Shown in pieces: positions 14,107 to 53,200 of a DNA stretch of 64,000 nucleotides. Under the pieces are notes generated by a model. It was not told the DNA's origin. It did no database searches and was given only the letters and a program-made list of their open reading frames with translations. The DNA comes from Phosphitispora fastidiosa. GTDB lineage: Bacteria > Bacillota > Thermincolia > Thermincolales > UBA2595. Positions within the stretch are counted from its first letter, which is position 1; every line of letters begins with the position of its first letter. The stretch is taken from positions 1 through 64,000 of the forward strand of contig NZ_JAHHUL010000002.1 of the NCBI RefSeq assembly GCF_019008365.1, read 5' to 3'. Both the position numbers and the translations under genes were made by a program.

Positions 14107-14280
14107 TTGTCTTGAAAAATCACAAATACGATTAACACCATATGCAAAATTTGATGAGTTGCGATTAAATGCTTAGTTTAGCGATGGTTTATGGATGGGT
14201 TTTCACACAGTCTGACGTCAGACTCATCCCTCCGGAACACATCTGCCACTTCTTAAATATATCCCAAGTATAGTAAAAGG

Positions 14281-14395
14281 TACAGCAGTTCACTCTCCTG
14301 ATCCCACATCTCACCTGTATAGCCAAAGGTGTTATGCAGCATATTCTTGCCGTCCTGTGACAGCTGGCTGTTCCCCGGTGCAGGGTTACCGTAAA
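14281..14395 (-). pseudogene. Fragment of an RHS core domain
   Basis: About 38 codons on the minus strand encode Pro-Ala-Pro-Gly-Asn-Ser, Leu-Ser-Gln-Asp-Gly, then His-Asn-Thr-Phe-Gly-Tyr-Thr-Gly-Glu and Gln-Glu-Ser-Glu-Leu-Leu-Tyr. This matches the intact RHS gene at 16561-16690 at about 85-90 % DNA identity. It has no start or continuation. It is a relic of a second RHS gene or of a partial duplication, cut by the palindromic element on one side and the intron fragment on the other. Confidence 0.85.
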
Positions 14396-14399
14396 TGCC

Positions 14400-14657
14400 G
14401 GGCTTCTCCGGTTAAGTGTAATTGCCTGAGTCTGAAACCATCCGTCCTAACTCCCCAGATTATCCAGCTTTCGGGCTTTCCCATTTCTTGCAGGGTTACC
14501 CATCCGGAGAGCCAACCTCGGTTCGCTTCCGCTATGTTCCAGTCTCCCCCTTCAGCTTCCTTCAGACCCCACCGTTAGCCAGTGACGCCCTTGCTTACGG
14601 GTTATCTTCCCGCTGGTTAGGTGATAGGGTTTCTTTCAACCCATCGGCCCGGTACAC
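14400..14657 (-). mobile_element. Group II intron fragment, 5' domain I
   Basis: Read on the minus strand from 14657, the sequence begins GTGTACCGGGC, close to the GUGYG 5' end of group II introns. It proceeds through the conserved CGTAAGCAAGGGCGTC and GGGGTCTGAAGGAAGC blocks that I recognise from group IIC domain I (Oceanobacillus type). Domains II-VI and any reverse transcriptase are missing. The 5' end lies 18 nt after the hairpin of the terminator at 14671-14706. Group IIC introns typically insert after such terminators, so the site fits. Confidence 0.7.
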
Positions 14658-14722: not shown

Positions 14723-15766
14723 TTATTTTATTACTTGTCTAACAGTCCCATCATTTTTTATTTTATAAAATTTCCCTTCTTCCTCAGAGGTGCTTTGATA
14801 AAAAATCCAACCACCTGATATATTTATATTGGCACTTTCATCATCATTAAGTCTAGTCTTATCAGTACCATCTGTCTTTATTTTATAAATTCTGTTATTG
14901 TCTGACTTATTGCGGTAATAAATCCAATCTCCTGATACATTTATATTGCTCACCATATCATTATTTAACTTAACTTTATTTGTCCCATCAATCTTCATTT
15001 TGTAAAGACCATTAATTAAATTCATTGAGTAATAAATCCAATCCTTTTCGATATTAAATTGTCCAACTAAGTCGTAGATTTTGGTTTTATCTAAACCACT
15101 GGTCCTAATTTTATATAGATTTTTATTGTCTTTCCGATTTAAGTAATAAATCCAGTCTCCTACTACATTTACATTTTCACACCAATCATCACTTAATTTA
15201 GTTCCGTTCGTACCATCAACTTTCAGTTTATAAAGTGCACCAAGTTCTGAACCGTTGCTATAATATATCCAATCTCCTACAACGTTTAAAAACCAAACAC
15301 TGTCATTGGTCATCATGGTTTTGCCTGTTCCATCAGTCTTTATTTTATATAATTTTTCGTTATCTGAACCATTACTATAATAAATCCATTCACCTACTAC
15401 ATTTATGTTTCTGCTTACATCATCATTTATCTTAATTCGGCTTAAACCATCTGCTCCTACTTTGTATAATTTTTTCCCATCCGATAAATTGCTATAGTAT
15501 ATCCAACCACCTTGTTTAGCTACTAGCCCATCATTAATGATATTTCCTACTGTATTGCCTCGTTCATTGACAATATCATACTCATTTGCTGTCTCTATAA
15601 CCTGATTTTTAGGTTTATCCGTCTGACAACCTGAGATAAACACCATAAAAACTATACCGGCAAAAACCATGGAACTTGTAGTGATAATTTTTATGAACTT
15701 CTTTTGCTTCCTCAAACCATAATAAGCAATTAAATTAAAAATCGGTTTTTTCATTAAAAAGTCCAT
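14723..15766 (-). CDS. DUF5050 repeat lipoprotein
   Basis: A 347-residue predicted lipoprotein. A basic N-terminus and a hydrophobic stretch end in Phe-Ile-Ser-Gly-Cys near residue 48, a lipobox. The rest is about seven repeats of roughly 40 residues containing Trp-Ile-Tyr-Tyr-Ser-Asn and Leu-Tyr-Lys-Ile-Lys-Thr-Asp-Gly-Thr, the DUF5050 signature, expected to form a beta-propeller-like fold outside the membrane. AAGGAAGGAG lies 9-10 bp before the ATG. It starts 24 bp after the giant RHS gene, the position where immunity genes of polymorphic toxins usually sit. DUF5050 is not a known immunity family, so this link is open. The gene is richer in AT than its neighbours. Confidence 0.8.
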   Translation of the reverse strand: MDFLMKKPIFNLIAYYGLRKQKKFIKIITTSSMVFAGIVFMVFISGCQTDKPKNQVIETANEYDIVNERGNTVGNIINDGLVAKQGGWIYYSNLSDGKKLYKVGADGLSRIKINDDVSRNINVVGEWIYYSNGSDNEKLYKIKTDGTGKTMMTNDSVWFLNVVGDWIYYSNGSELGALYKLKVDGTNGTKLSDDWCENVNVVGDWIYYLNRKDNKNLYKIRTSGLDKTKIYDLVGQFNIEKDWIYYSMNLINGLYKMKIDGTNKVKLNNDMVSNINVSGDWIYYRNKSDNNRIYKIKTDGTDKTRLNDDESANINISGGWIFYQSTSEEEGKFYKIKNDGTVRQVIK

Positions 15767-15790: not shown

Positions 15791-18700
15791 TTATAAAAAC
15801 TTCGTTGAAATACTGTGAGCAACTATTTCGATGTCTTCATAGGTATCATTTAAGATTGCCTCAATAGTATCAAAATACGCGTAAACCATTAGGATAGTTC
15901 TATGAGAATCGTCTTCACCAATTGAAACCCAACCAGTATCTCCATAGTAGTAAGCTCTGTCAATTTCTTTCAACCGACTTTTCCAATATTTCCAGCCATT
16001 ATGATCCGGGTCCACCCATAACCCATTTTTGCTTATATGGGCATGTCCAAACATATATTTATATATTCCAAATATTATTTTATCCCTAGAAGCACTTTTC
16101 AAGTTCGGTTGTATCATATAGGTAATGCCATTAAATACTATGCCGGGTGCTTCAGACAAAGCTTTCTCTTGTAACCAACTAATACCTGCTGAACCTGCCT
16201 TTGCAACTCCAACTAAGAGCTTGCCTGCTCCTATAGTAACTGCTGCTGTTAACACATCTTTTGCAGCTTCAGGTAAGTCACCTCGATAGACATCATATCC
16301 TATTTTAACTGCATCTCCAACAAAGGGAACTAATGATACCATTTCAATTTTTTCATTCAATGATTCATTCTCAAAATATGCCCTCTTGTGTCCTAATTCT
16401 GTAAACCACCCCAGTCTATATTTTCCTGTGGGGTCACTAAAATTAATAGGGTTGTTCTGTACATATATGAATAAATTCTTACTCAGCGGGTTCTGCAGAT
16501 TCCCCTCATACGTATCCCTACTCAGGAACCTCCCCGTCTCCGGCTCATAATACCTCGCCCGCAGGTACAGCAGTTCACTCTCCTGATCCCATATCTCACC
16601 GGTATAGCCGAAGGTGTTATGCAGTACATTCACGCCATCCTGGGACAGCTTACTGTTCCCCGGTGCAGGTTTGCCGAACTCATCATAACGGTAGTGGTCA
16701 CGCTTGTTCCCGTCTGGCTTCACCATAAAGGTGACACTGCCTAAGCCGTCATAGAGGTAATACAGCGGGTCCTGGGATTCCGGCCTGGTCTCATCCAATG
16801 CCTCAACTTCGATACGCTCTAATCCGTAAGTATAGGCTGCGTTGAAGTTGCCATCTTCACCATAGGTCATCAATACCTGAGTAAGCGGGTCAGACACATC
16901 GTTGAGGTAATAAGTGATTTCAACTTTTTCACCTTCAGGGCCCTGGGGTATCTTCCCATTCTTATACCACCCCAGGTGTTTACCCCGATTTTCGTATTTC
17001 CCTTTTTTGCGGTAGCCCTTCTTAGCCTTGGCCTTCTCTTTTTTAGCTTCTCTATCCTTTATATCGAGGTCTTTATTCTTTACTTTAGCACTGTCTTTGC
17101 CGTTATTGACCTTATCCTTTTCATTTCCGTTCTCTTTACCGTTGTCAGGCTTATCCTTGTCATTCCCATTGCCGTTACTGCCGCCGCTATTACCGCCACC
17201 GTTATTCCCACTGCTGCCGCCGCCATTTCCGCCGCTGTTGCCTTTGCTTTTGCCTCCCTCACCCCTGTCATTCTTCAGCAGCATATAGACCAGGTCAGCC
17301 CTCTGCTTCTTAACCTTCTGCTGGCCGGGAGGCACAAACTCAGGGTCATTGCCTTTGCCGTTGTCCTGTTTAATCTCTTCTTCATGCCACGGCTGGGTCA
17401 TAGCTGACAGCTTGGTGATGCGGTTGCCGTCACCGTCATATTCGAATCCGACCCACTTATCCTGGTGAAAGTTTACTTCTGTGAGGCGGTTCTCGTAATC
17501 CCAGGTATATGTGGTTACCCGGTCCCCGGGCTCTATTCTGGTGGTCCTGTTCCCGTTATTGTCATAGCGGAACTCGGTGTATGGGCCTTCATTCATGTTG
17601 TACCTGAGCAGTTCATTTGCTTCGTTGTATTCATATTTCGTGGTGGTGATGCAATCCCCTTCTGTTTTTGTCATTTTTATCCTGTTGCCCGCCGGGTCAT
17701 AGTCATAGGTCACCTGGCCGCCATTGGGGTTGTCCACTCCAATGAGCTGGTTTAGGGGGTCATATTCATAATCTGTGGTATAGACCATGTCTTCTACGGT
17801 CTGGGTGAAGCTATCCCGGTTCCCGGCCCCGTTATACGTATATTCATACTTGGCCAGGAGTTTGTCTGCCGGGTTTCTGCTGGCAATAGCAGTGAGCTGG
17901 TTTGCCCTGTCATAGTCATATGAGGTGACTACCCCGTTTGGTAAGACAGTATCTGTGCGGCGGCCCACGGCGTCATATTTGTACGTAGTGGCTTTACCCA
18001 GCCGGTCGGTTACCGTTTCCAGGCGGTTCAGGTTATCATAACTGTAGGTTACTTCCTTACCGTCAGGGTAGCGGACTTTTGTTTTCTGGTCCAGTTGGTT
18101 GTAGCCATATTCGGTGGTCATGTCATCCTGGTTGGTTACTGCAGTCAGGCGGCCCATTTGGTCATAGTCATACCAGGTGGTACCATACATGTCTTCCATC
18201 CATTCCCGTTTACCCTGGTCGTTATAGCCGTATTCGACATAGCTGCCATCAGGGTAATAGGCCCCCAGGAGGCGGTTGAGTTCATCATATTCATATTCTA
18301 CGTTGCTGCCATTGGGGTCTGTCTTGGAGATGATGTTGCCGTTTTGGTCATAGTCAAACGAGTTCTTTTGCCCCAGGGGATTGATTACTTCGGTAAGCAG
18401 GTTCTTCTGGTTGTATCTGTATTCGGTGGTATGGTGATTGGCATCAGTGAATAAGACCAGGTTTCCGACATCATCATATTTGTACCTGGTGGTATTGTTT
18501 TTGGCATCAATAACCTGTTCCAGACGTCCATTGGCATCATAGCCGAACTTGGTGGTATTATTATTGCCGTCTGTGACTGCCAGCCGGTTGCCGTTTTTGT
18601 CAAGTTCGATCTCGGTATCACGGTTTAACGGGTCAGCCACCCCAACCAGACGGCCCATGTCGTCATACTCATAGGTGGTCCTCTGGCCCAGGGCGTCAAT

Positions 18701-21700
18701 CATAGCTGTCCGGTTGTTTGTCTCATCATACTCGAACCGGGTGATGTTCCCTGCCGGGTTGATTACCTTTTCCAGGTTGTTGTTATCATCATAACGGTAG
18801 GCATATGTCTGATTCAGGGTATTGGTGACGGTCTCCCTGTTGCCGGAACGGTCATAGGTGAATTTGGTGGTGCTCCCTATCTGGTCGATAACCTCTCTTA
18901 CCCTTGACTGGCTGTCATACCGGTACTCTGTGACTGTCCCGTCAAAGTCTGTGTAGGTGAGGGTATTGCCCAGGTCGTCATAGGTGTATGCAGCTCTCCG
19001 CCCCAGGGGGTCGATAACTGCTTCCAGGCGGTTCAGGATATCATATTCATAGTATGTGGTTTCACCTTTGGCATCTATGACTGCTGTCCTGTTCCCATTG
19101 GGGTCATAGGAATATGTGGTGATATCCCCGGCAGGCTCGATAATTTCCCGCAGCCGGCCCAGGTCATCATAGCGGTAATCAGTCCGGTTGTTGTTGGCAT
19201 CCTTTGTCCACAAACGGCTGCCGTTGCCGTCATAACCCATCCAGGTATATTTCCCCAGGGGGTCTTTTCCCCTGACCATTAGTCCCCTGCTTTCATATTC
19301 AAAGGTGGTCACATTCCCCTCAGGGTCCCTGGTGCCTGTCAGGTAATTGTTATAGTTGTAGCTGTTGATGGTTGTGCCGATGGGTGTCCTTTCTTCCAGC
19401 AGGTTGCCGTTGTCGTCATATTCATAATATGTGTAGTTCCCTTTGGGGTCTTCGACTTCTTCCAGCCTGCTGATACCGTCATAGCGGTAATAAGTGATAT
19501 ATCCCCTGCCGTCTTTTACTGTGGCTGCATTCCCGTCAGAGTCATAGGTATAGGACACCGTTTTCCCTGCCGGGTCTGATACTGATTTTACCTGGCCGGA
19601 GCCGTAATAGGTATATGTGGTTGTCTTCCCTTCGGCATCAGTCACCCTAAGGAGGTTGCCATTTCCGTCATATTCCAGGAGGGTCTTATTGTCCATGGCA
19701 TCAATGATGTCTGTAACATTGTTGTCATTATCATATACATAGGTGTTCTCTTTACCGTCTGCATTTATAACTGAGGTCAGGTTGTTCCGGGTGTCATAAT
19801 CATATTGGGTCACATTGCCCATGGCATCAGTCACCGTGTCCCGGTTGCCCCGTCCGTCATAATGGTACTCTGCCAGGATGCGGGTTGCCGAAGCAGAGGT
19901 AACCACAGGATCCGGTTCTCCCGTCACAGTTCCTTCATTTATGGACATATCCGTGATGCCGGATACCGTGCCCCCGGTTTGGGTATCAGTGAATTTGCTG
20001 TCCTCTGCCGGTGCCGCATAATTTACATAAACCGTCCCGTCAGCCGTATCAGGCCCGGAGATGCTTGTCACCCGGTATTCGCTGTCAAATTCATAAATAA
20101 ATTCATTTCCATTACGGTCGGTATATGTTGTCCTCCCGCTGTCATAATCCATGCTGACAGTATAACCGGCGGCATCGGTCTGCCTGATGACCCGACCCTG
20201 ACTGTCATATTCATTAACTACAGCCACATTGCCCATAGGGTCGGTTACCTTGGTAACCAGGTAGTTGTCATGGGCCAGGCCCTCTTCATCCACATAGCCA
20301 TATTCATACTTTACAGCCCCGCCGTTGGGGTCAATTACCTGGAGGAGCCGTCCCCAGTTGTCATAGTCATAGTCCACCTGGCGGCCTTCAGGATCCTGGA
20401 TTATGATCACCCGGCCCATTTCGTCATAATACAGGGTACAGGTCCTTCCGGCAGCATCAGTCACCTGCCGCAGCAGTCCTTCCCCGTCATAGGTCATGGT
20501 TACCGCATTCCCGTTGCGGTCGGTAACCCGGTCCAGCATCCCGTCATCATTGAAGTGATAGACGGTGTCATATTTGGTGATGACTGAATAGGTCCCGTCA
20601 CCGTTCTTCACCAGTTGTTCGGTGACATCATCATCAGAGACATAACGGCTACCCGACTTACGGAAGAAATACCCTCCCCCGTCACCGCCGGTGGCCAGTA
20701 TGGAACCATCCTCATATTTTACCAGCATCTTGTCATAGCCCATGTACCAGTTCTGCCCCATAGGCCCCCGGTATATTTCAGGTTCCCGGGCATTAAAGAA
20801 CCTGGTGAATTCCACCGGCAGCCCCAGGGCGTCAAAGGACAGGTCGGTATCTATGACAAAGAAGTTCCCGGTGGCAGCATCAACAGAGTTGCCGACTATA
20901 TCACCATTGGCATATAAGGGCCTTATCTTTTCCCTCAAGCGGTATTCCTCATCAGGGTTTATGATGATCTCTCCGCCTATATATGGTTTTTCCCGTTTGG
21001 GGTCAGGGATAAGGACATAGTCCCCGACAACCATATCAAGCTCTGAATCAATTTCATTTATTTCTTTGAGCAGGTCATCTTTTGTCCCGTCCAGGTAATA
21101 GAATTTGGCCATCCTCTTCATCCTGGCCCCTTTGCTGTACCTGGTCACCAGGAATTTCTGGGAGGTGGTGTCACCGGTAATTGTCTCGGTATGGGTTTCG
21201 CCCTCTTCATCGGTCCATTCAATTTCATATGTATAGTACATGGAGATGGTCTTGTATTTACCTTCTTCAAAGGTCAGCCCGTCTATTTCCCAGTCACCGC
21301 TGCTGTCAGCAGAGGTGGTATAGTTATCCCCGTCACCGGTGGAGAGATATATCCTGGCATCATCCCTAGCACTGCCGTAAACCCTGATTTCACCTGTATC
21401 ACGGTCGATGCCCAGGCTGAAGTCCGCCGATGGCTGGGGCGGGTTCAGGGTATATGTGTAAGCCAGTTTGGGATGTTTGCTGTTATATGTGTCTGACCTG
21501 GGGTCATCATCAGCGCCATAGTTGCTGGAAATTAATTTTACATAACCTGAGCCGGAACCGGGGACAAGGGCCAGTCCTCCGTTCTTCTTGACCGGGTCTT
21601 CCATCCACCTCTGGACCAGGTCCAGGACATCAAAATTCCACCACCCGGAAGACGGGCCTGCCGTGCTGTCAACAAGCTCACCCAGGGTATCGCCCCGTGC

Positions 21701-23050
21701 GGACACGGTCTGCCACCAGTTCCATGTCAATACCTCATAATCCCACATCACGTCAGGGATTACCCGGTACAGGTCAACAGAATCCGGACTGCCCCCTGCG
21801 GCATAAACAGAAAAGGTGGCTTCCGTTACCGTGGCATTGGCTTCACGGATAATATCACGGAAATAGAAGAAACTCATGGTATCCCCAAATCCGGCAGTAT
21901 CCCCCACATAGAGGTGTTCACTGTCATTATAGGCGGTATCGGGGTACTTTGAGGAAATAAAGGTGTCCCTGCCGAAGCGTTCTCCCGGCTGGAGGGTGGG
22001 GTCGATGACAACAGGATAAGCCCTGTCCGGGGCAGTGAGCCATTCGGGGTCGGCTGTCACGGTGAGCACCGTTTCGCCAAACAGGCCGTATTTACGACTT
22101 ATTTCTGCAGTTACGGCCTGAGAGCGTTCGCCCCTGGCATCATACATGTATGGTGTGGGCATGTTCCAGATAACATCACCTGTACCGGGGTCGGTGAAAT
22201 CGATAGAGCCATCGTCCCGCATGCTGTAGTCCAGGTGCCTTATATCAAGGGCAAACTTAAACTCAGACGGGGCCTCCGGGTCATTAAGGATGATTTCCTC
22301 CTTCAGGGTTTTCCCGTCAATAATGTACCTGAGGTCGGTATGGTCTGTTATGCCGCGGTAGATTAAGGTATTCTGTACAGCCCTGGCCGGACTTTCTTTA
22401 CTGCCCAGAAGGCGCCAGGCAATGGCATGCTCCTTCTGCTGTATCTCTCCCAGCTTCTGTTCCCCCGGCTTCCCCCAGAACATCTCCCGGGAGGCTGTAC
22501 CGGACGTTTCACGGACCGTTTCACCGGCCTTTTCACGGGACTTAACCCATGAATTCTCAGAAAAGCGCACTTTAAGGCTGTTGGCCCGGTTTTCAAAGGC
22601 ATAGCCTTTTTCCGGTGACTCCACCAGGGTATTATCTATGTCTGCCAGCCCGTTGTTTTCATCCCTGTAATGGACCGGTTCCTGGTAGACCTCAGTCCTG
22701 TATTCACTGTCACTGATTTTGAAGGTTTTGGAGTACTCAGTTCTTTTCTCCCTGACCTCATTTCTGCTTTTGGCCTCCAGGACCGCCGGGTTTCTGGGCT
22801 TTTTGGGCCCTGCAGTCTCGGGCAGGACATTTTTGTCCCTGCCCGGCTCGTTTTTCTCAGGCCCGGTGTCATAGACCGTGTCATCAACCTTCTTGGCCGC
22901 TGCCGGGCGCAGGAACCCTTCAAAACCTCCCAGGGTCCATTCCTGCACAGCCAGCCTGATTACCCCGTCCAGGGCCCCCATGTTCAGGGCCAGGGCCAGA
23001 ACAACAGCCAGGACCTTAATCCACAACTGCTTTTTAAATGTTTTTCTCAT
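15791..23050 (-). CDS. Giant RHS-repeat secreted protein, WapA-like polymorphic toxin candidate
   Basis: A 2419-residue exported protein. Residues 1-30 are a signal sequence. A beta-sandwich (DNRLRE-like) region spans about 350-530. An RHS N-terminal domain (about 715-790, with Thr-Gly-Asn-Phe) leads into more than 40 YD/RHS repeats (about 800-1900; Tyr-Asp-x2-Gly-Asn/Asn-Arg-Leu). A Gly/Asn/Lys-rich linker covers about 1927-2010. The RHS core at about 2110-2210 ends in Tyr-Asp...Asn-Pro-Ile-Asn-Phe-Ser-Asp-Pro-Thr-Gly. The final 200 residues are variable, starting with a pretoxin-like Gly-Asp-Ala-Val segment. The shell is known to encapsulate a C-terminal toxin in contact-dependent killing. 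I do not recognise the last domain. AAGGAGG precedes the ATG, and a c-di-GMP riboswitch and terminator lie in the leader. Confidence 0.92.
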   Translation of the reverse strand: MRKTFKKQLWIKVLAVVLALALNMGALDGVIRLAVQEWTLGGFEGFLRPAAAKKVDDTVYDTGPEKNEPGRDKNVLPETAGPKKPRNPAVLEAKSRNEVREKRTEYSKTFKISDSEYRTEVYQEPVHYRDENNGLADIDNTLVESPEKGYAFENRANSLKVRFSENSWVKSREKAGETVRETSGTASREMFWGKPGEQKLGEIQQKEHAIAWRLLGSKESPARAVQNTLIYRGITDHTDLRYIIDGKTLKEEIILNDPEAPSEFKFALDIRHLDYSMRDDGSIDFTDPGTGDVIWNMPTPYMYDARGERSQAVTAEISRKYGLFGETVLTVTADPEWLTAPDRAYPVVIDPTLQPGERFGRDTFISSKYPDTAYNDSEHLYVGDTAGFGDTMSFFYFRDIIREANATVTEATFSVYAAGGSPDSVDLYRVIPDVMWDYEVLTWNWWQTVSARGDTLGELVDSTAGPSSGWWNFDVLDLVQRWMEDPVKKNGGLALVPGSGSGYVKLISSNYGADDDPRSDTYNSKHPKLAYTYTLNPPQPSADFSLGIDRDTGEIRVYGSARDDARIYLSTGDGDNYTTSADSSGDWEIDGLTFEEGKYKTISMYYTYEIEWTDEEGETHTETITGDTTSQKFLVTRYSKGARMKRMAKFYYLDGTKDDLLKEINEIDSELDMVVGDYVLIPDPKREKPYIGGEIIINPDEEYRLREKIRPLYANGDIVGNSVDAATGNFFVIDTDLSFDALGLPVEFTRFFNAREPEIYRGPMGQNWYMGYDKMLVKYEDGSILATGGDGGGYFFRKSGSRYVSDDDVTEQLVKNGDGTYSVITKYDTVYHFNDDGMLDRVTDRNGNAVTMTYDGEGLLRQVTDAAGRTCTLYYDEMGRVIIIQDPEGRQVDYDYDNWGRLLQVIDPNGGAVKYEYGYVDEEGLAHDNYLVTKVTDPMGNVAVVNEYDSQGRVIRQTDAAGYTVSMDYDSGRTTYTDRNGNEFIYEFDSEYRVTSISGPDTADGTVYVNYAAPAEDSKFTDTQTGGTVSGITDMSINEGTVTGEPDPVVTSASATRILAEYHYDGRGNRDTVTDAMGNVTQYDYDTRNNLTSVINADGKENTYVYDNDNNVTDIIDAMDNKTLLEYDGNGNLLRVTDAEGKTTTYTYYGSGQVKSVSDPAGKTVSYTYDSDGNAATVKDGRGYITYYRYDGISRLEEVEDPKGNYTYYEYDDNGNLLEERTPIGTTINSYNYNNYLTGTRDPEGNVTTFEYESRGLMVRGKDPLGKYTWMGYDGNGSRLWTKDANNNRTDYRYDDLGRLREIIEPAGDITTYSYDPNGNRTAVIDAKGETTYYEYDILNRLEAVIDPLGRRAAYTYDDLGNTLTYTDFDGTVTEYRYDSQSRVREVIDQIGSTTKFTYDRSGNRETVTNTLNQTYAYRYDDNNNLEKVINPAGNITRFEYDETNNRTAMIDALGQRTTYEYDDMGRLVGVADPLNRDTEIELDKNGNRLAVTDGNNNTTKFGYDANGRLEQVIDAKNNTTRYKYDDVGNLVLFTDANHHTTEYRYNQKNLLTEVINPLGQKNSFDYDQNGNIISKTDPNGSNVEYEYDELNRLLGAYYPDGSYVEYGYNDQGKREWMEDMYGTTWYDYDQMGRLTAVTNQDDMTTEYGYNQLDQKTKVRYPDGKEVTYSYDNLNRLETVTDRLGKATTYKYDAVGRRTDTVLPNGVVTSYDYDRANQLTAIASRNPADKLLAKYEYTYNGAGNRDSFTQTVEDMVYTTDYEYDPLNQLIGVDNPNGGQVTYDYDPAGNRIKMTKTEGDCITTTKYEYNEANELLRYNMNEGPYTEFRYDNNGNRTTRIEPGDRVTTYTWDYENRLTEVNFHQDKWVGFEYDGDGNRITKLSAMTQPWHEEEIKQDNGKGNDPEFVPPGQQKVKKQRADLVYMLLKNDRGEGGKSKGNSGGNGGGSSGNNGGGNSGGSNGNGNDKDKPDNGKENGNEKDKVNNGKDSAKVKNKDLDIKDREAKKEKAKAKKGYRKKGKYENRGKHLGWYKNGKIPQGPEGEKVEITYYLNDVSDPLTQVLMTYGEDGNFNAAYTYGLERIEVEALDETRPESQDPLYYLYDGLGSVTFMVKPDGNKRDHYRYDEFGKPAPGNSKLSQDGVNVLHNTFGYTGEIWDQESELLYLRARYYEPETGRFLSRDTYEGNLQNPLSKNLFIYVQNNPINFSDPTGKYRLGWFTELGHKRAYFENESLNEKIEMVSLVPFVGDAVKIGYDVYRGDLPEAAKDVLTAAVTIGAGKLLVGVAKAGSAGISWLQEKALSEAPGIVFNGITYMIQPNLKSASRDKIIFGIYKYMFGHAHISKNGLWVDPDHNGWKYWKSRLKEIDRAYYYGDTGWVSIGEDDSHRTILMVYAYFDTIEAILNDTYEDIEIVAHSISTKFL

Positions 23051-23074
23051 TCATCATTCCTCCTTCGCAGACGC

Positions 23075-23102
23075 AAAAAACACCTACCCGATAAGATAGG
23101 CG
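23075..23102 (-). terminator. Riboswitch expression-platform terminator
   Basis: Minus strand: CGCCTA/TAGGTG stem (23081-23102) followed by TTTTTT (23075-23080), located between the c-di-GMP aptamer and the RHS start codon. It can abort the RHS transcript, so the riboswitch probably works by transcription control. Confidence 0.75.
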
Positions 23103-23130
23103 CTTCTACTGTAATGTAATATAGCAAATT

Positions 23131-23240
23131 CTGCTTCGGCAGCCCGGCTGTCATAGCATATCACGGTTAATAAAAGTCGGTCGCGATATGCTTTAGACCC
23201 GTGGCTTTGCGCCCCCGCCTTTCGGCGGGTTTGCCTTTAT
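23131..23240 (-). ncRNA. Cyclic-di-GMP-I (GEMM) riboswitch
   Basis: The minus strand shows the full GEMM-I consensus in order. GGCAAACC (from 23235) is followed by a CCGCC-GAAA-GGCGG hairpin with the GNRA tetraloop. Then come GCGCAAAGCCACGGGTCTA with the conserved GCAAAGC core, a second helix closed by GCATATC/GATATGC, and the closing block GACAGCCGGGCTGCCGAAG. The aptamer ends about 30 nt before the terminator that precedes the giant RHS gene. This is a strong sequence match by eye to the class-I c-di-GMP aptamer. Whether ligand turns expression on or off cannot be read directly. Confidence 0.93.
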
Positions 23241-23252
23241 CGGGGAATTGAA

Positions 23253-23417
23253 TCTTGTTTATTCTGGATCTTGTTTATTCTGGATCTTGTTTATTCTGGA
23301 TTTTGTTTATTTTATGCTCCTTTTTACATTTTACCACCTTTTTTTACATTTTCCGGCAAAAGGGTCTGAAATGCGGTTTTCGGGGTCTAAAATGCGGTTT
23401 TGGGGGTATGAAATGTA
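23253..23417. repeat. Short tandem repeats upstream of the RHS riboswitch
   Basis: Two arrays. At 23253-23310 a 16-bp unit (CTTGTTTATTCTGGAT) is repeated about three and a half times. At 23365-23417 a 21-bp unit containing GGTCTGAAATGCGGTTTT is repeated two and a half times with small changes. An overlapping plus-strand frame has no coding signature. The arrays lie where the RHS promoter should be and may be regulator sites or slippage-prone phase-variable DNA. Confidence 0.75.
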
Positions 23418-23518
23418 GTCTGCCCCTATTCAATTATTGATTCCTCTTTCTCAATTGATAAAACAACAGAAACCCGGAGCAAGGTCAAAGACATAAAAAA
23501 ATATACTTTCTATACGTT

Positions 23519-23555
23519 GAAAAAGCTGCCGGCTTATACTAAGCCGGCAGCTTTA
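23519..23555 (-). terminator. Intrinsic terminator after the zf-HC2 gene
   Basis: Near-perfect 14-15-bp stem AAAGCTGCCGGCTTA/TAAGCCGGCAGCTTT (23522-23555) with a TACT loop and a T run on the minus strand. It closes the ftsQ-to-zf-HC2 block and separates it from the RHS region. Confidence 0.85.
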
Positions 23556-44208: not shown

Positions 44209-47200
44209 CTAAGCATACATGGAAAGCACATTTGTGGATGCAGCTTCACTCACTAATTCACCGTCAGACTGAGCAGTAACTGTAATCCAATCTCCCAATT
44301 GTAACGTCAGGCCTGTAACCTCCCAGCTGCCGTCAACTCCGGCAGTTACAGGCGCTTGCGGCGCCCCGTTAATGCTGAGGATAATCTCTGCTCCTGCTGT
44401 AGCTGTTCCGGTGACCACTGTGTGATCCTCTTTTACCGGCAGGGTAATAACCGGCGCTGCTGTCTGGGCCAGCAGAGAAGCTTCTGTTGTCACTGCAACT
44501 TTTACAATTGACGTTGCATTACCGTTGCTGTCATAGGCAACTACATAGACATCATACGCTGTTTCCACTGCCAATCCTGAAACAGTGATTACCGCCTCAG
44601 TGTCAGGGGTTAAAGAGATTTCCCCAAAACGGTTTCCGGGTAAAGGCTGACCATCATCGTAACAGCCCGCGGTAATTCTGGATGTATTGCTTGGCGGTGT
44701 CGCCCCGGCATCATATACAACAAAGTAGGCATCGCCATACTCATTGGTCTGTACCGTTAAATCAAATTGAGTCTCGGTGATATTATCAGTCTTCGGATAA
44801 CCGGCCGCAAATTCAGGTGGTGTCGTATCTTCCTGGACATTAATCGCGAAGGTAACGGGATCACCGGTATCAAAGCTGACAACAAAGGAGTATATTCCTT
44901 CACCGTTGTCCCACAGATCGTTTAACACAATTGGTTTAACAGCCAGAACAGCCGTACCGTCTCCGCTGTCTGTAACTATATACTCTGATCCCATGAGAGT
45001 ATATCCTTCATCATAGGCTTCAGGTACAAAGATACCGGTAACCTGAGCAGCATCTACCCAGTTTATGGTTGTGACCACATTTTCATAGCCAAAGTAGTAG
45101 AAGTCTGCTGCCTCCGGGACAATAACAGCACTGATTACATCCCTGGTGGTAAAGCTCCAGGTGATTGCTTCATTACCGGTGCTGCCGCTTCGTACCGCAT
45201 CTGCCGGGATGGTTACCGTGTAAGTTGTGTTATGGTTTAAGGTATCATGGGCAATAGTCAGGGTACGGTTATCACCCTGTAGGACTGCCGCCACATTGCC
45301 CACCTGTTGTATTACCCCATCCAGATAGGTTATAGTGATGCCGCTGAGGTCGTTTACAGTAACATCTGTATCAAAGGTAACAGCGGTCGGGGGGTTTATA
45401 TCTGCTGCCGGGGCGCCGTTCATTGGAACCAGCGTCTCTGCTGCCGGCGCCGGAGGTACTGCCTTGACCGTCAGTTTATAGTATTTGGTGGTTACCCCGT
45501 CTTCGGCAACAACAACCACTACAATGACATCATTCTCTGCCAGGACTTGAGTTGCCAGGTCTGCTTCATCTATCGTTATCCCGTTTAGGGTCACAGTTAC
45601 TGTTGCATTGCTGTCAGCAGGCGCTGCCCCAATCCCGGCGAACCCGGTAAAGTCCGCTACCTCAAGCTCTGCTCCCGCATCCACCGAGGGGTCGGTCACC
45701 TCAAGTCCGGTCAACCCGGTTACATCCACCCCGCCTGCGGTGAAGACTGCCAGGGTGGCATTAGTGTTCAGGGGTCTGGTAATCTCCGCCAGCTTGATGA
45801 TACTGTCAGCATTATCTGAGTATATGGCATTAAATGTACCCCCGGTATTTACCACCGATACCCTGGTGCCTTTGACAACAATACCATCATATACCTGGGA
45901 CTGCCCGTTGTAATGGGTCTGCAGCTTGGTGGAATTGATGCCGCCCACAACTACATTGGTTAAGTCGGTTTCCACAGAGCTGACTGAGGTGCCGGTAAGA
46001 CCCCCGGTGTTAATAAAGCTGATGGCCGCACCGCTGAAGACCAGTTCGGACACCTTAAAGGTACTCTGCTTATAGAGAAGGTGTATTGTATCCCCATTGG
46101 CAGTCAGGTCATAGATGTCAAAAACATCTGTAGATGAACCTGTGGTGCTGCCGGTGCCCAGATTTGATTTGACAACTATGGAATAGGTTTTGTCAGTACC
46201 GCTCATCCATCTATAATAATTGTATTTGTGTGCTGCAATATAATAGTTGTCTCCTGAATCCAAGGCAATATAGGAGCCTTTGTTAAAGTAGTTCCCGGCA
46301 TAGGTAGCCCCTCCCAGGCTTTCATAATACCCGTCAAAGATAACCTGATTCGTAAAACTGCCCGAAGTATTTACGGCATACATAATATCCGGCTTGTTAT
46401 CATACCAGAAGGTATTTCCATCTGTATCCGTATAGGTTATATGGGCATAGCCATTACTGTCCACGGCAATATCCGGTTTGGAGCAGGAACCGCCATTATT
46501 GGATGCTATCAACACCTCACCGCTCCAGGCGCTGCCGTTAAAAGTACGGTAACCGATGGCCCCATTTGTGGTATAGGCTATATGAGCGTTATCGGAACTG
46601 TCAATGGCCATTCTTCCTTCAGTACCTGTTCCAATTTCTGTTTCCACACCCCAGAGACCGCCGGCCTTCTCATTGTAGTAAATTTTGCCGTCCCTGGTAT
46701 ATACAACTCCGATAAAATCAGAACCGGCTTCCGCTTCCAGGAAATCCCCCACGGGAATTACCTCACTCAGTAATACTGCAGTTACCTTGTAATGCCTTAC
46801 CGTTGTTCCATCCTCAGCCACCACTGTCACTACTATTACATCATTTTCTGCAACAGCCTGGTGAACCGGGTCTGCTGCGGGGATTCCATTTACGGTAACA
46901 GTCACTGCTGCATTGGCATCAGCTGCCGCTGCCGCAATACCGGTAAAATCAGTGAAATCGGTTATTTCAAGTTCAGCTCCCTGGTCAGTCATCGGGTTTG
47001 AGACCTCCAGTCCCGCCAAACCGGTTACGTCAATTCCACCTACAGTGAAGGCAGCTAAGGTTGCATCTGAGTTTGGAGTTAACAGCAGAATTTCATCTGC
47101 GGTAAGCTCCCGGGAAACCGTCATTTCACTCCAGAATGTGGTTTGTCCCTCCAGGGGCTTAATAACCAGCTCAATATGGGAGGGAATAAAGACCTCAGCG

Positions 47201-50200
47201 GGATTACTCCACCACTGCACAATAACTTCATTCAGGCTGCTGTAAGTCTTTGTTCCGTCTGCCGATATCCCTAAAGTGGTCAGAGCTTTGGTCACCGACT
47301 GCTCACCTAGCTTCAGGGTAACTATTGAATTATCCTTATCCAGGTAATATGGTGTCAGATGGGCCTCATTATAATTAATTTCCGTCCCATTTTCAAAGAA
47401 CTTGTAGCCAAAAACGATACTGCCCTCACTAATATCTACTTGGGCGCCGGTAATCTGGTCCAAAGGCTGAACTGTAATCGCAAGTTCGCCTTTCGCTGCA
47501 ACTCTTCCGGTGGCATCTTCTGTCACCCGGTAGCTTATGGTTGTGTCGCCGGCTGCTGCTGCAGTTATTTCTCCTGTGGCAGCATTAACAACCGCTTTGG
47601 TCTCATCACCGGACTGCCATGTAATCGTTTCTCCCGCTGCCGGTGCCGTAAATTCCGCAGGTGTTACATTAGGCTGACCTACCCTGACTTCGGCAATTGC
47701 GGGGTTATCGATGACTGCTGCCGGATAGACAGTGATTTCAGTACTGTTGTAGTTACCACTGTCTGATACGGTATAACTGATTGTAGTTGTACCGGCCCCC
47801 AGGGCTGTAATTACCCCGGTACTGGCATCAATGGATACTGTGGCTGTATTGCTGGACTGCCACCCGCCGACGCCGGCTTCTGTGGTCGAGGCCGCAGCTG
47901 TTGTGTTTTCTCCTATCTGGAGAACATTATCGATGTCAACTGCTGCGCCGAGAATGATAAAGTTTGCCGTATATTCCACATCCCCGGTTACAGTAAAGGT
48001 ATATGTGCTTGCTGTGCTTATCTCTGTTCCGCCTTCGGTCCAGTTAACAAACAGGTAGCCTTCGTTTGCAGAGGCTGTCAGGGTCACCTCGGTGTTCTCT
48101 TCATGTAACCCTGCTCCCACCACGGTTCCGCCATCCACAGGGTTGATATTAATCACAATATTAAATCCGGGAATCGTATCCGGTCTCGGTATTGATGCTC
48201 CATCCTGCCAGTACAGGTATGGATAGCTGGCCCCTTCATCAATTGCCCAGACATTATCAAAATCCCAGCCGGTAAATGTCTCCCCTCTGATCATTTTAAA
48301 AGTGGTTTTGGGTTCACCTTTGCCTGTGTCGGACTGTCCTGATGTATTAGTATCATAGTAACAGTTGTTAATATCTCCGACACCGCCGTCCTGATACCCG
48401 ATAAAGCCTCCTATGGTGCTGCCGCTTCCGGTAACTACTCCTGTGGAATATGAATTAAGAAAATGGCTGAGCGCATGGGCATTTCCAGCCATACCCCCTC
48501 TGCCCCAGGCTGCTCCAGTAACAGTAACATGGGAAGCACAGTTAACTATGAGATTACCGGCGCCGTGTTCTCCTGCCAAACCGCCGCCGTTTTGTGAAGC
48601 AGCTGCCACTATACCTGTTGCCCGGCACATTTGAATTGTCCCGTAACTGGCCCTGCCGGCAATGCTGCCTACATAACTCTTCCCGGAAATGTTGACATTT
48701 TCCAGGGATAAATCCCGGATAACAGCATAGTAAGTCATGCCAAAGAGGCCAATATTGTCCTCATTCGACCGGTTTATAGTGAGATTGGAAATTGTTTTGC
48801 CATTACCATCGAGTTCCCCTTTAAACTCTGAGCCCCAGGTTGGTCCGATAGGTATCCAGCCCTTGCCTTCATTGTACTCCGGACCATCTTCACCCAGGTA
48901 ACCGGCTAAATCTATATCATTCAGCAAAATAAAATGCTTATTACTGTGAGCAGCTCCCAGATAGTTGCGGATATTGTGCAAATGCCTGGGTTCACTGATT
49001 TGCCAGGGAGCCTCTGCAGTACCTGAGCCTCCGGCAAACTCTGCCAATGTAGTAACGGTTGTGCCGTCACCTGCTGCTGATGCTTTGTGGGTATCTGTTT
49101 CCCTGACCCTGGCAATAAAGGTGTATCCAGTCTCCGGTGTTAATCCTGTGAAGACTTCACTGTCTTGCCACGTGGAACCGCCATCCCGGCTAAACTCCAC
49201 AAGGGGATTGGCAGTCAGGGTAACAGTGGTCTCAGTTTTGCCCACCAATACCGGTGCATCAGGCGCTGCCGGTCCATCAGCTTTTTCCACTGCTGCTGTC
49301 GGGGCGCTGGTGACACTTCCGGCGGCATTGCTTCCATCAGCCGTTACTGTTGCGGTTATGGTCTGCCCGATGTCTTCCTGTACCAGGATGTAAGCCGTGC
49401 CTGTGGCCCCTGCAATGGCTGCCCCGCCGCGCTGCCACCGGTATGAAAGTGAGTTATCAGTTACCTCACCAGTGTACGTAAGTCCACTGATATTTGCTGT
49501 CAGTGTTTCTCCGAATTTAGTACTGCCATCTATTGTTACTGTGCCGCCCATTTCAGGCAGTGGTGCATTGTCAAAAGCGGTTATCGCCGCATTCAGGGCA
49601 GTCACGGCATCAGCGACTTGCTGCACTGTTGCTGCCACATTATCTGCTACCGCCTCTGCTGCTGCTATGGCCGCTTCCAAAGCATCCAAGTCTGCCTGCA
49701 GGACTTGTCCGGGATTCCGCGGTGTTGTTCCAACATCAGCATTTTCCGCTTTACCCTCGGCTGTTGCTATTGCTGCCAGCAAAGCTGTCTTGTCCACTTC
49801 TCCCTGTACTGATGCATCAAAGTCTGTTACCGCTCCATTTAGCGCAGTGACCGCATCAGTAACTTCCTGGACCATTGCCTCTGCATTATCCGCTATTAAC
49901 TGTGCTGCCGCTATAGCTGCTGTCAATGCATCCAAATCTGCCTGCAGCACTTCACCCGGGTCTCTCGGGTCTGTCCCGACCACAGCATGGTCCACTTTAT
50001 CCTGGGCTGCTGCTATCGCCGATGTTAACGCTGTCTTGTCTACTTCTCCCTGGACTGCGGCCTCAAATTCTGTTACCGCTGCATTTAACGCAGTAACCGC
50101 ATCAGCAACTTCCTGCACTGTTGCCTCTGCATCAGCTGCCATTGCCTGTGCTGTTGCTATAGCTGCTTCCAAAATATCCAAATCCGCCTGCAGGACTTCC

Positions 50201-53200
50201 CCCGGATCTCTCGGGTCTGTTCCTACCATAGCACTGCCTGCTTTTACCTGAGCAGCTGTTATTGCAGATGTTAACGCTGTCTTGTCCACTTCTCCCTGGA
50301 CTGACGCATCAAATTCTGTTACCGCTGCGTTCAGGGCAGTGACCGCATCGGCAACTTCCTGTACAGTTGCCTCTGCATCAGCTTCAACAACCTCTGCTGC
50401 TGTTATAGCTGCTTCCAGTGTATCCAAATCTACCTGCAGCACTTCACCCGGGTCTCTCGGGTCTGTCCCCACCACAGCCGCATCCGCTTTTCCCTGGGCT
50501 GTTGCTATCGCAGATGTTAACGCTGTCTTTTCCACTTCTCCCTGTATTGATGCCTCAAAGGCATCTACAGCTCCATTGAGTGCAGCAACCGCAGCAGCGA
50601 CTTGCTGCACTGTGGCTGCCACATTATCTGCTACCGCCTCTGCTGCCGCTATAGCTGCTTCCAAAGCATCCAAGTCTGCCCGCAGGACTTCACCCGGGTC
50701 TCTCGGGTCTGTTCCTACCATATCAGCAGCAGCATCCGCTTTTGCCTGAGCTGCTGTTATCGCCGATGTCAGGGCTGTCTTATCTACCTGGCCGATATCA
50801 CCCGCCTGGACATTATAGACATATTCTTCCCCTGCAGGTATAAGACCGGCTGCTCTAACCCTGACCTCAATCCTGTCCCCGGCAATCAGAGGCGTACCGG
50901 CCTGAGTTATCCTGTCAGCCGATATGCCAGGTGTCCAGTTTTGTTTGACTGCACTGCCATCAGAATTTGTGATCCTGAATTCCAGAGCAGCGGCAATATT
51001 GATTTTTGTCTGTCCTGCAGCTTCTCCTGCTGAAGGCCGGGTAATAACAACTTCTCCTCCGGCAGGCGCTGCCGGAGCAATTGTTACAATAAAGGTCCCC
51101 GCTTTGATTACTTCATTGGAACTATTCTTTATCTGGACATCAATTGTGGCTCTGCCAGCTGCTAAAGGAGTTACCCGGATCTCATTACTGCCTGCTCCGC
51201 TCACCTCTGCAGCAGCAACTTCAGGCGCCGAGGAATTGACTTCCAGTATTTCTCCCGCATCTAAAACTACAGAATTGGAACTGTCCGCCGGGCCGCCAAC
51301 AGTAAGATTAACGCCTGTCAGACCTGTAACTAGCTGTATTTCCGGAGGCGCTAATCCTATGATTACAGGCGGCACAATTACGGTGTTATTGACCGCAATT
51401 CTCGATAAGCTTCCACCCACAATGTTAATATAGGCACTATTTTCCTCTACCTGAAGATAATTAATCGTTCCGCCTGCAACGGTAATCTGAACACCATCTG
51501 ATACCACCTGAACTACATTGATACTTCCGGCGAATCGAACCTGGCCGGTGGTATTTACCGAAACTGTTGCCTGACCTGCATTTCCGGTTAGATTTAGTGA
51601 TGCCGGACCAAATACCCCGATTACACCATGATGACTTCCCTGACTGTTAAAAGTATCTGCTGATACCGCCTGAATATTGGTATCCCCGGTTACTGTAACA
51701 TCATCAGTTACATTAACAGTGGCATTGGGAGTATTGATAGTCAGGTTACCGGATATGGTCATGTTCTGAATTGTGATAACCTGACTTAAATTGCCCTCAA
51801 TTAAGATGTCACCATTAATTGTATGGATTCCCGTTTCCGGGCCATAGGTAATATCCTCTGTCCCTGCAGGATATAATGTCACCGGCCCATCAGTTGTTCC
51901 ACCATCAGTCCAGACAGGTACTGTTGCTGCTGCTGCTTCAAACACGGCACTGGCAGCAGCATAACCACTCCTGCTGAAGGTAAGTGTATATTCTCCGGCC
52001 ATTGGCAGTTGGGAATCGACCGGATAAATTGTATAGCGGCCCGGATCATTATCTTCCGGGTCATCAGATATCCATTCATAAAAAGCTGCTTCATTGAGCG
52101 GTATAGCGGTTTCTCCCTTATTGAGAGAAAAATCACTGACAGACAGCCCTGTTATTGGAGCATTAGTTTCATCATTTGTGACAACTGCATCAAAATGGTC
52201 GGGAACGATACTACCGGAGGGAACTGCCAAATTTACCTCCGTATCGCCGCCACCGCCACCGCCACCGCCACCGCCACCGGCTGCCGGTGTGGTTGCCGGT
52301 GTGGTTGAAGTTATGGTGATATTGCCTCCGGCAGCTACAGTCAGCGTAGTCCCTGCAGCAAATGCCGTATTGTTGATGACCACATTTTCAGCTTTCACTT
52401 CGATTGTCGTTTCAGCCCAGACGTCAATATCTGCCCCTTTGGCAGTTTCGCTCACGGTTATTGCCGTGATTTTTGCGCCCTGGGCAATGGTGACTTTCGC
52501 TGCCGCCTTAACAGCTACAGTGGAAATAGTCGCTGTTTCTGATATTTCAATGGTTCCGCCCCGGATAAAGGTCTTTCCCTTTACGGTAACACCATCCAGG
52601 GTTACTCCACTATTACCTATTCCTTCGGCAAGATACAGATCCCCTGCAATAACCATATCCTTAAGGATTACATTACCGGAATTAACCACCAGGTTACCCT
52701 TGGTCTCGCTGCTGTACGTACCTGGCTGGTTAATAATCTCCCCACTGGCTTTACCGAGGATTGTAACTGTTTCGGCACGTTTAATATTCTTCTCCGGCCC
52801 GAATGTGCCGTCAGGATACCCGCCGATAAAACCTTTACCCTGCATAACAGCTACAGAGTTTCTGGCCCAGTCCCCAATCTGACCGGAATCCTTAAATTCA
52901 GAAGACATTGAGGAGGTGTCATCACTTAAACCAAAGGCCTTAACCACCACTAAAGCAGCTTCCTGACGGGTAATATTGTTCTGCGGCCTGATGGAGCCAT
53001 CAGGATATCCCCCAACATAACCTGCAGCCACAGCTTTGGCAATTTCGTCATAATACCAGACATCGCCGGATACATCTGAGAAACTTACCACAGCTTTTTC
53101 CTTAAACCCAAATACCTTGTTTATCAGGGTGAAGAATTCTGCCCTGGTAATGTTATTATCCGGTCTAAAGGTATTATCGGAATAACCTTTAATCAAACCC

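What the first reader, a model, noticed from the sequence alone, without database searches (positions are those of the whole stretch)
23075..23240. Cyclic-di-GMP riboswitch controls a giant RHS/WapA-like protein
A textbook GEMM-I aptamer is followed by a terminator hairpin and then the RHS start codon. c-di-GMP riboswitches usually control motility, adhesion or pili genes; placing a predicted contact-dependent toxin or surface RHS protein under c-di-GMP would tie intercellular competition to the sessile/motile decision.
Basis: partly seen in the sequence, partly recalled or inferred. Interest (0 to 1): 0.78.

Follow-up and report, generated by a model that had tools for sequence, protein, structure and literature searches.

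The report
c-di-GMP riboswitch upstream of RHS/WapA gene
A real RNA sensor for the bacterial "settle or swim" signal c-di-GMP sits in front of a giant gene that looks like a bacterial contact weapon, and the same pairing occurs in all ten close relatives of the gene that were checked, so it is unlikely to be an accident.

Summary
Confirmed and strengthened. On the minus strand of a Thermincola-like genome, a class I c-di-GMP aptamer (23244→23134; Rfam 81–87 bits) is followed by an intrinsic terminator (23103→23080), an RBS and the ATG of a 2,419-aa protein (23050→15791) with DNRLRE, DUF6531, YD/RHS repeats and an Rhs core: the WapA-like architecture. Ten of ten close N-terminal homologues, in six genomes from at least three families, carry the aptamer just upstream, including four paralogues in one genome and homologues only 43–48% identical. 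Two distant homologues (~30%) do not. C-terminal tails after the DP.G junction differ completely between copies (one is a clear VanY peptidase), the next gene usually encodes a lipoprotein or membrane protein, and orphan RHS-tail cassettes lie downstream: the genetic signature of a polymorphic toxin. The terminator loop is complementary to a P1 strand of the aptamer, which predicts c-di-GMP → termination → OFF, so the protein would be made at low c-di-GMP. Ligand binding, switching and toxicity are untested. Rfam's "GGC" label is probably not diagnostic, because the A47-equivalent is retained. The riboswitch is an ordinary class I member; conserved riboswitch control of a WapA/RHS gene was not found in the open-access literature searched.

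The parts
23134..23244 (-). Class I c-di-GMP (GEMM-I) riboswitch aptamer
   Evidence: cmscan RF03167 81.3 bits E 9.3e-18; RF01051 87.1 bits; P2 and P3 covary across 10 distinct RHS leaders
23237..23245 (-). 5' P1 strand CCCCGAUAA, predicted antiterminator strand 1
   Evidence: 8-bp complement of the terminator apical region (-11 to -12 kcal/mol)
23125..23131 (-). GAAUUUG, 3' strand of the extended P1 (partner CAAUUC/CAAAUUC/CAGGUUC just 5' of the aptamer)
   Evidence: forms in the minimum-energy folds of most relatives; visible in the alignment
23080..23103 (-). Intrinsic terminator hairpin GCGCCUAUC-UUAUCG-GGUAGGUGU followed by a U-tract
   Evidence: -12 to -14 kcal/mol; stem has changes on both sides at 2 of 9 pairs, one-sided at 5, in relatives
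23087..23094 (-). UUAUCGGG in the terminator loop/3' arm, predicted antiterminator strand 2
23059..23066 (-). Ribosome-binding site GAAGGAGG
   Evidence: read from sequence
15791..23050 (-). 2,419-aa WapA-like RHS protein: hydrophobic N-terminus, DNRLRE domain, DUF6531, about 24 RHS/YD repeats, Rhs core, DPTG junction, unique C-terminal tail
15791..16423 (-). C-terminal variable tail (about 210 aa), no known domain; homologue in G003:C42
   Evidence: no Pfam match, no solved relative, 57-58% identity to G003 pieces, structure model unusable
14723..15766 (-). 347-aa DUF5050 lipoprotein, candidate immunity protein (weak)
   Evidence: Pfam E 8.3e-79; lipobox SGC; starts 24 bp after the RHS stop codon; not next to the tail homologue in G003
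14270..14417 (-). Orphan RHS-core fragment (remnant of a displaced RHS tail cassette)
   Evidence: sequence encodes ...NSQLSQDGKNMLHNTFGYTGEMWDQESELLYL..., matching the RHS core just before the tail

Best explanation
The element is a transcription-terminating class I c-di-GMP riboswitch in the leader of a WapA-like RHS polymorphic-toxin gene. At low c-di-GMP a P1 strand of the unliganded aptamer pairs with the apex of the terminator hairpin (in the window CCCGAUAA with UUAUCGGG), so RNA polymerase reads through and the giant surface protein is made. At high c-di-GMP the ligand locks P1, the antiterminator strand is unavailable, the terminator forms and expression stops. The exported protein would present a swappable C-terminal tail that acts on neighbouring cells, with protection from the gene that follows. 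SHOWN by computation: aptamer, terminator, gene architecture, conserved linkage, variable tails, orphan cassettes, complementarity of P1 strands to terminator loops. INFERRED: c-di-GMP as ligand, OFF direction, export, toxicity, immunity.
For: Aptamer scores 81-87 bits and keeps the G20-, A47- and C92-equivalent bases and the GAAA tetraloop. Linkage: aptamer directly upstream of 10/10 close homologues: G000 (1), G002 (4 paralogues), G008 and G005, G009 in another family, and G097 outside the class (2), where the protein is only 43-48% identical. Compensatory changes in aptamer and terminator stems: 98% of cells paired against 32-46% when slid, 7 pairs with double changes. Antiterminator: own aptamer-terminator pairing beats swapped partners over 18 riboswitches (p ~5e-5) and beats shuffled loops (Fisher 7.7e-5 for 6 RHS leaders, 2.6e-6 for 12 others). 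G009 (UGCCGAAG/CUUCGGCA) and G097b (UUCCGAAG/CUUCGGAA) show different but matching pairs. The window leader is poised: -65.5 kcal/mol (terminator) against -65.9 (antiterminator). C. difficile class I c-di-GMP riboswitches are transcriptional OFF switches (PMC11477304). The genome has 15 GGDEF domains. Tails after DP.G are unrelated between copies: VanY/M15 above cut-off; Cu-amine-oxidase-N; sub-threshold or marginal Zn-PLC, Lnb_N and SleB-type hydrolase. Downstream genes mostly encode lipoproteins or membrane proteins. Orphan tail cassettes as in known Rhs loci (PMC3967940).
Against: No experiment. In relatives the terminator fold beats the antiterminator by about 4-12 kcal/mol at equilibrium, so switching must be kinetic or the default is OFF. 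The P1-strand pairing uses the 5' strand in some copies and the 3' strand in others. In the six-leader RHS set the swap test alone is weak (p ~0.1), and related leaders are not independent in the shuffle test. The window tail has no known toxin domain, and its neighbour in G003 is not DUF5050. Other RHS genes of the same genome (C10, C3, C35) have no aptamer nearby, and the one on C9 has one only 3.3 kb upstream behind another gene.
Confidence: 0.6

Rival explanations
1. The riboswitch is as described, but the RHS protein is a surface adhesin or cell-wall-remodelling enzyme scaffold, not a weapon; c-di-GMP then controls attachment, as for many known class I targets.
For: Identified tails include cell-wall-type hydrolases (VanY; weak SleB) and copper-amine-oxidase-N; the other riboswitches of this genome precede pili, chemotaxis and surface genes; C. 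difficile class I targets include adhesins and flagella.
Against: Tails differ completely at the DP.G junction between paralogues of one genome, lie beside unrelated lipoprotein or membrane genes, and are accompanied by orphan RHS-tail cassettes, the pattern described for Rhs/WapA toxin-immunity loci (PMC3967940).
Confidence: 0.25
2. The switch has the opposite sign (c-di-GMP turns the gene ON), tying the weapon to the sessile state.
For: Not all class I riboswitches need be OFF; equilibrium folding in relatives favours the terminator without ligand, so ligand could relieve it; in B. thuringiensis Bc1 one terminator unfolds as c-di-GMP rises (PMC11218506).
Against: The terminator is self-contained and about 31 nt beyond the aptamer; the only pairing found to compete with it uses P1 strands, which the bound aptamer would hide. 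No conserved linker antiterminator was seen by eye in the alignment.
Confidence: 0.2
3. The aptamer binds c-di-GMP but hardly regulates, because another promoter or a dominant terminator overrides it.
For: Bc1 of B. thuringiensis binds but does not respond (PMC11218506); no good sigma-70 promoter was found, only one 9/12 match at 23461-23433 on the right strand.
Against: Aptamer plus terminator kept across families and through four duplications.
Confidence: 0.12
4. The ligand is not c-di-GMP (the Rfam best hit is a named variant, or cGAMP is sensed).
For: Rfam's lowest E-value is for c-di-GMP-I-GGC.
Against: The GGC consensus reads GCGAA where this sequence reads GCAAA (alignment), so the A47-equivalent is canonical in all RHS leaders; the G20-equivalent is G, not the A of cGAMP-type variants (numbering from own knowledge of the Vc2 aptamer); RF01051 scores higher in bits.
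Confidence: 0.05

Closest known systems
Class I c-di-GMP riboswitch (Rfam RF01051, GEMM-I), C. difficile transcriptional OFF type
   Same: Aptamer sequence and structure, downstream intrinsic terminator, canonical ligand-contact bases
   Different: Target is a WapA-like RHS polymorphic protein; P1 strands (5' or 3') appear to pair with the terminator apex; switching untested
WapA / Rhs polymorphic toxins (B. subtilis WapA, S. suis WapA-CT, enterobacterial Rhs)
   Same: RHS/YD repeats and Rhs core, DP.G junction, variable C-terminal tail, neighbouring small gene, orphan tail cassettes
   Different: Riboswitch-controlled leader; recognised tails look envelope-directed; toxicity not tested; window tail is of unknown type
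V. cholerae TfoY: c-di-GMP riboswitch, low c-di-GMP raises T6SS killing (PMC4858559)
   Same: c-di-GMP, through a leader with a riboswitch, feeds into interbacterial killing at low c-di-GMP
   Different: There the riboswitch precedes a regulator gene; here it precedes the putative weapon gene itself

Membership tests
Class I c-di-GMP riboswitch (RF01051) | Covariance-model score above gathering cut-off | tested here: met
   87.1 bits against 35
Class I c-di-GMP riboswitch (RF01051) | Canonical ligand-contact bases (G20, A47, C92 equivalents) and GAAA tetraloop | tested here: met
   Invariant in all RHS leaders; numbering mapped from own knowledge
Class I c-di-GMP riboswitch (RF01051) | Binds c-di-GMP | not testable with these tools
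   -
c-di-GMP-I-GGC variant (RF03167) | Score above cut-off | tested here: met
   81.3 bits against 59
c-di-GMP-I-GGC variant (RF03167) | Variant base (G in GCGAA of the model consensus at the A47-equivalent) | tested here: not met
   Window reads GCAAA (alignment); that this base defines the variant is my inference, original paper not held
WapA/RHS polymorphic toxin | RHS/YD repeats, DNRLRE domain and Rhs core | tested here: met
WapA/RHS polymorphic toxin | C-terminal domain variable between close homologues after DP.G | tested here: met
WapA/RHS polymorphic toxin | Cognate immunity gene next to the tail | tested here: inconclusive
   Lipoprotein or membrane gene follows in most copies, but DUF5050 is not beside the tail homologue in G003
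WapA/RHS polymorphic toxin | Orphan tail cassettes downstream | tested here: met
   G002 C34, C33, C23; array in G003; remnant in window
WapA/RHS polymorphic toxin | Growth inhibition by the tail | not testable with these tools
   -

The most novel reading that the evidence does not exclude
A lineage-wide arrangement in which one fixed c-di-GMP OFF riboswitch leader directly controls a family of swappable RHS/WapA contact weapons: tails are exchanged by recombination downstream while second-messenger control is kept, so the weapon is made in the motile, low-c-di-GMP state.
Probability: 0.5. Interest if true: 0.65.

Novelty: new member of a known kind. Interest (0 to 1): 0.5.

Why it matters
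If true, it links the motile/sessile signal to a polymorphic toxin system by a single RNA element, without an intermediate regulator as in Vibrio TfoY. It also makes a testable prediction about when such weapons are deployed in Gram-positive-type bacteria, and suggests that leader and toxin tail evolve as separate modules.

Tried and rejected
The Rfam 'GGC' label as evidence for another ligand was rejected because the variant base is absent. DUF5050 as proven immunity was rejected because the tail homologue in G003 has a different neighbour. A structure model of the 210-aa tail was unusable (pLDDT 37.6), so no fold search was run. PADLOC had no match for the RHS or DUF5050 protein. Literature searches for c-di-GMP riboswitch with RHS repeat, YD repeat or polymorphic toxin found no report of the pairing, but only open-access papers are held. 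A sigma-D-like reading of CCGATAA inside the aptamer was dropped (spacing wrong, inside P1). Scans with wrong coordinates or too much sequence failed and were redone.

Full report
WHAT IS THERE. The whole-window Rfam scan returns two families: a c-di-GMP-I-GGC aptamer at 23244-23134 on the minus strand (81.3 bits, E 9.3e-18) and a group II intron fragment at 14585-14417. The parent c-di-GMP-I model scores 87.1 bits at the same place. Reading in RNA sense: a short AT-rich leader, the aptamer, about 31 nt of linker, a terminator GCGCCUAUC-UUAUCG-GGUAGGUGU (23103->23080) with a U-tract, GAAGGAGG, and AUG at 23050. The upstream gene on the same strand (zf-HC2, 23900->23595) ends before a perfect 15-bp inverted repeat at 23522-23554, so the leader probably has its own promoter. 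Only one weak sigma-70-like match lies on this strand (23461-23433, 9/12).

LIGAND CLASS. The window sequence differs from the GGC consensus at the base that I take to define the variant: the consensus reads GCGAA, the window GCAAA (alignment). GCAAA is invariant in all RHS leaders, and the G20- and C92-equivalents are canonical. Mapping to Vc2 numbering is from my own knowledge; the paper that I believe defines the variant is not held. c-di-GMP is therefore the expected ligand. The genome carries 15 GGDEF domains and 18 class I aptamers. Their downstream genes, identified here only by reading the ORF translations, include Flp/Tad-type pilus genes, methyl-accepting chemotaxis proteins, a flagellar operon and surface or exported proteins.

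THE GENE. The 2,419-aa protein has a hydrophobic N-terminus, DNRLRE domain, DUF6531, RHS/YD repeats and Rhs-associated core, the WapA-like layout. Its reading frame is intact.

THE LINK IS CONSERVED. Homologues of the first 720 residues were sought in the genus, family, class and 299 genomes of the phylum. Close homologues occur in G000 (1), G002 (4), G008 (1), G005 (1), G009 (1, other family) and G097 (2, outside the class; 43-48% identity). All ten have a class I aptamer just upstream. Two distant homologues (about 30%, G181 and G268) have none nearby. G001 keeps aptamer and terminator fused to an internal RHS fragment at a contig end. In the own genome the RHS genes on C10, C3 and C35 show no aptamer in the stretches scanned; the one on C9 has an aptamer 3.3 kb upstream, in front of a separate gene. 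The pairing therefore belongs to this WapA-like lineage, not to RHS genes in general. Relatives in the public genome collection are labelled Thermincola ferriacetica MAG BL5_bin.1.

STRUCTURE AND SELECTION. In the 11-leader alignment, P2, P3 and the terminator stem have 98% of cells paired against 32-46% when slid, and 7 pairs changed on both sides, with 0 of 500 shuffles reaching any measure. The alignment is small and the sequences are related.

HOW IT PROBABLY SWITCHES. The terminator does not overlap the aptamer, so ligand control needs a competitor. In the window CCCGAUAA (5' P1 strand, 23244-23237) is perfectly complementary to UUAUCGGG in the terminator apex (23094-23087). The two folds are within 0.4 kcal/mol of each other. 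In G009 and G097 the competitor is the 3' P1 strand (UGCCGAAG/CUUCGGCA; UUCCGAAG/CUUCGGAA; UACCGA/UCGGUA). Over 18 non-redundant riboswitches the aptamer pairs with its own terminator better than with swapped ones (p ~5e-5; RHS subset alone p ~0.1) and better than with shuffled apices (Fisher 2.5e-9 overall, 7.7e-5 for RHS leaders, which are not independent). Because ligand-bound P1 hides these strands, the prediction is OFF: c-di-GMP promotes termination. This agrees with class I riboswitches in C. difficile (PMC11477304). Against it, the terminator is favoured at equilibrium in the relatives by about 4-12 kcal/mol, and Bc1 shows that a bound aptamer need not regulate (PMC11218506).

IS THE PROTEIN A WEAPON? 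After the DP.G junction the tails are unrelated: VanY/M15 peptidase (G002 C23, above cut-off); copper-amine-oxidase-N domain (C33, above cut-off); Lnb_N (C34, marginal); zinc phospholipase C-like (C19, below cut-off, in a locus whose RHS frame is broken); SleB-type hydrolase (G008, below cut-off); an unknown tail in the window. The following gene usually encodes a lipoprotein or membrane protein, judged by eye from the translations. Orphan RHS-core-plus-tail fragments follow in G002 C34, C33 and C23, in a G003 array, and as a remnant in the window near 14,270-14,417. This is the pattern described for Rhs and WapA toxin loci (PMC3967940; PMC12704120). The window tail has a 57-58% homologue in G003, but there the next gene is a small membrane protein, not DUF5050, so the immunity partner is uncertain.

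COMPARISON AND NOVELTY. The aptamer is an ordinary class I member. The nearest functional precedent is Vibrio TfoY, where low c-di-GMP raises T6SS killing through a riboswitch-bearing regulator (PMC4858559). No open-access paper found pairs a c-di-GMP riboswitch with RHS/WapA genes; subscription papers were not searchable. I rate it a new member of a known kind with an apparently unreported, conserved target.

Noticed in passing
L047 about 2590-2950, L048, L050 (G002 RHS leaders); 42 matches in G000: A MITE-like inverted-repeat element is inserted between terminator and RBS in the G002 RHS leaders; its end matches 42 places in the window's own genome, but the window leader lacks it.
   Followed up: partly
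window 14417-14585 (-): Group II intron D1-D4 fragment directly upstream of an orphan RHS-core remnant.
   Followed up: no
window 23249-23311 and 23362-23424: A 16-bp tandem repeat and three 21-bp AAATGCGGTTTT-type direct repeats upstream of the aptamer; the 21-bp motif also lies upstream of the G002 and G001 RHS aptamers and the C21 aptamer, possibly insertion-sequence ends.
   Followed up: no
window 44209-53346 (-): 3,045-aa surface protein with three S-layer homology domains, FIVAR and InlB-type repeats.
   Followed up: partly
G000:C2 93406-94841 (-), about 30 kb beyond the window: Three class I aptamers within 1.4 kb on one strand, two of them nearly in tandem.
   Followed up: no
L100 (G001:C43:1-232, -): Aptamer and terminator fused to an internal RHS repeat fragment at a contig end: a rearranged RHS locus.
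   Followed up: partly
L102 (G003:C42:1-4600): Array of displaced RHS tail cassettes, each followed by a candidate lipoprotein or membrane protein; one tail is homologous to the window's.
   Followed up: partly
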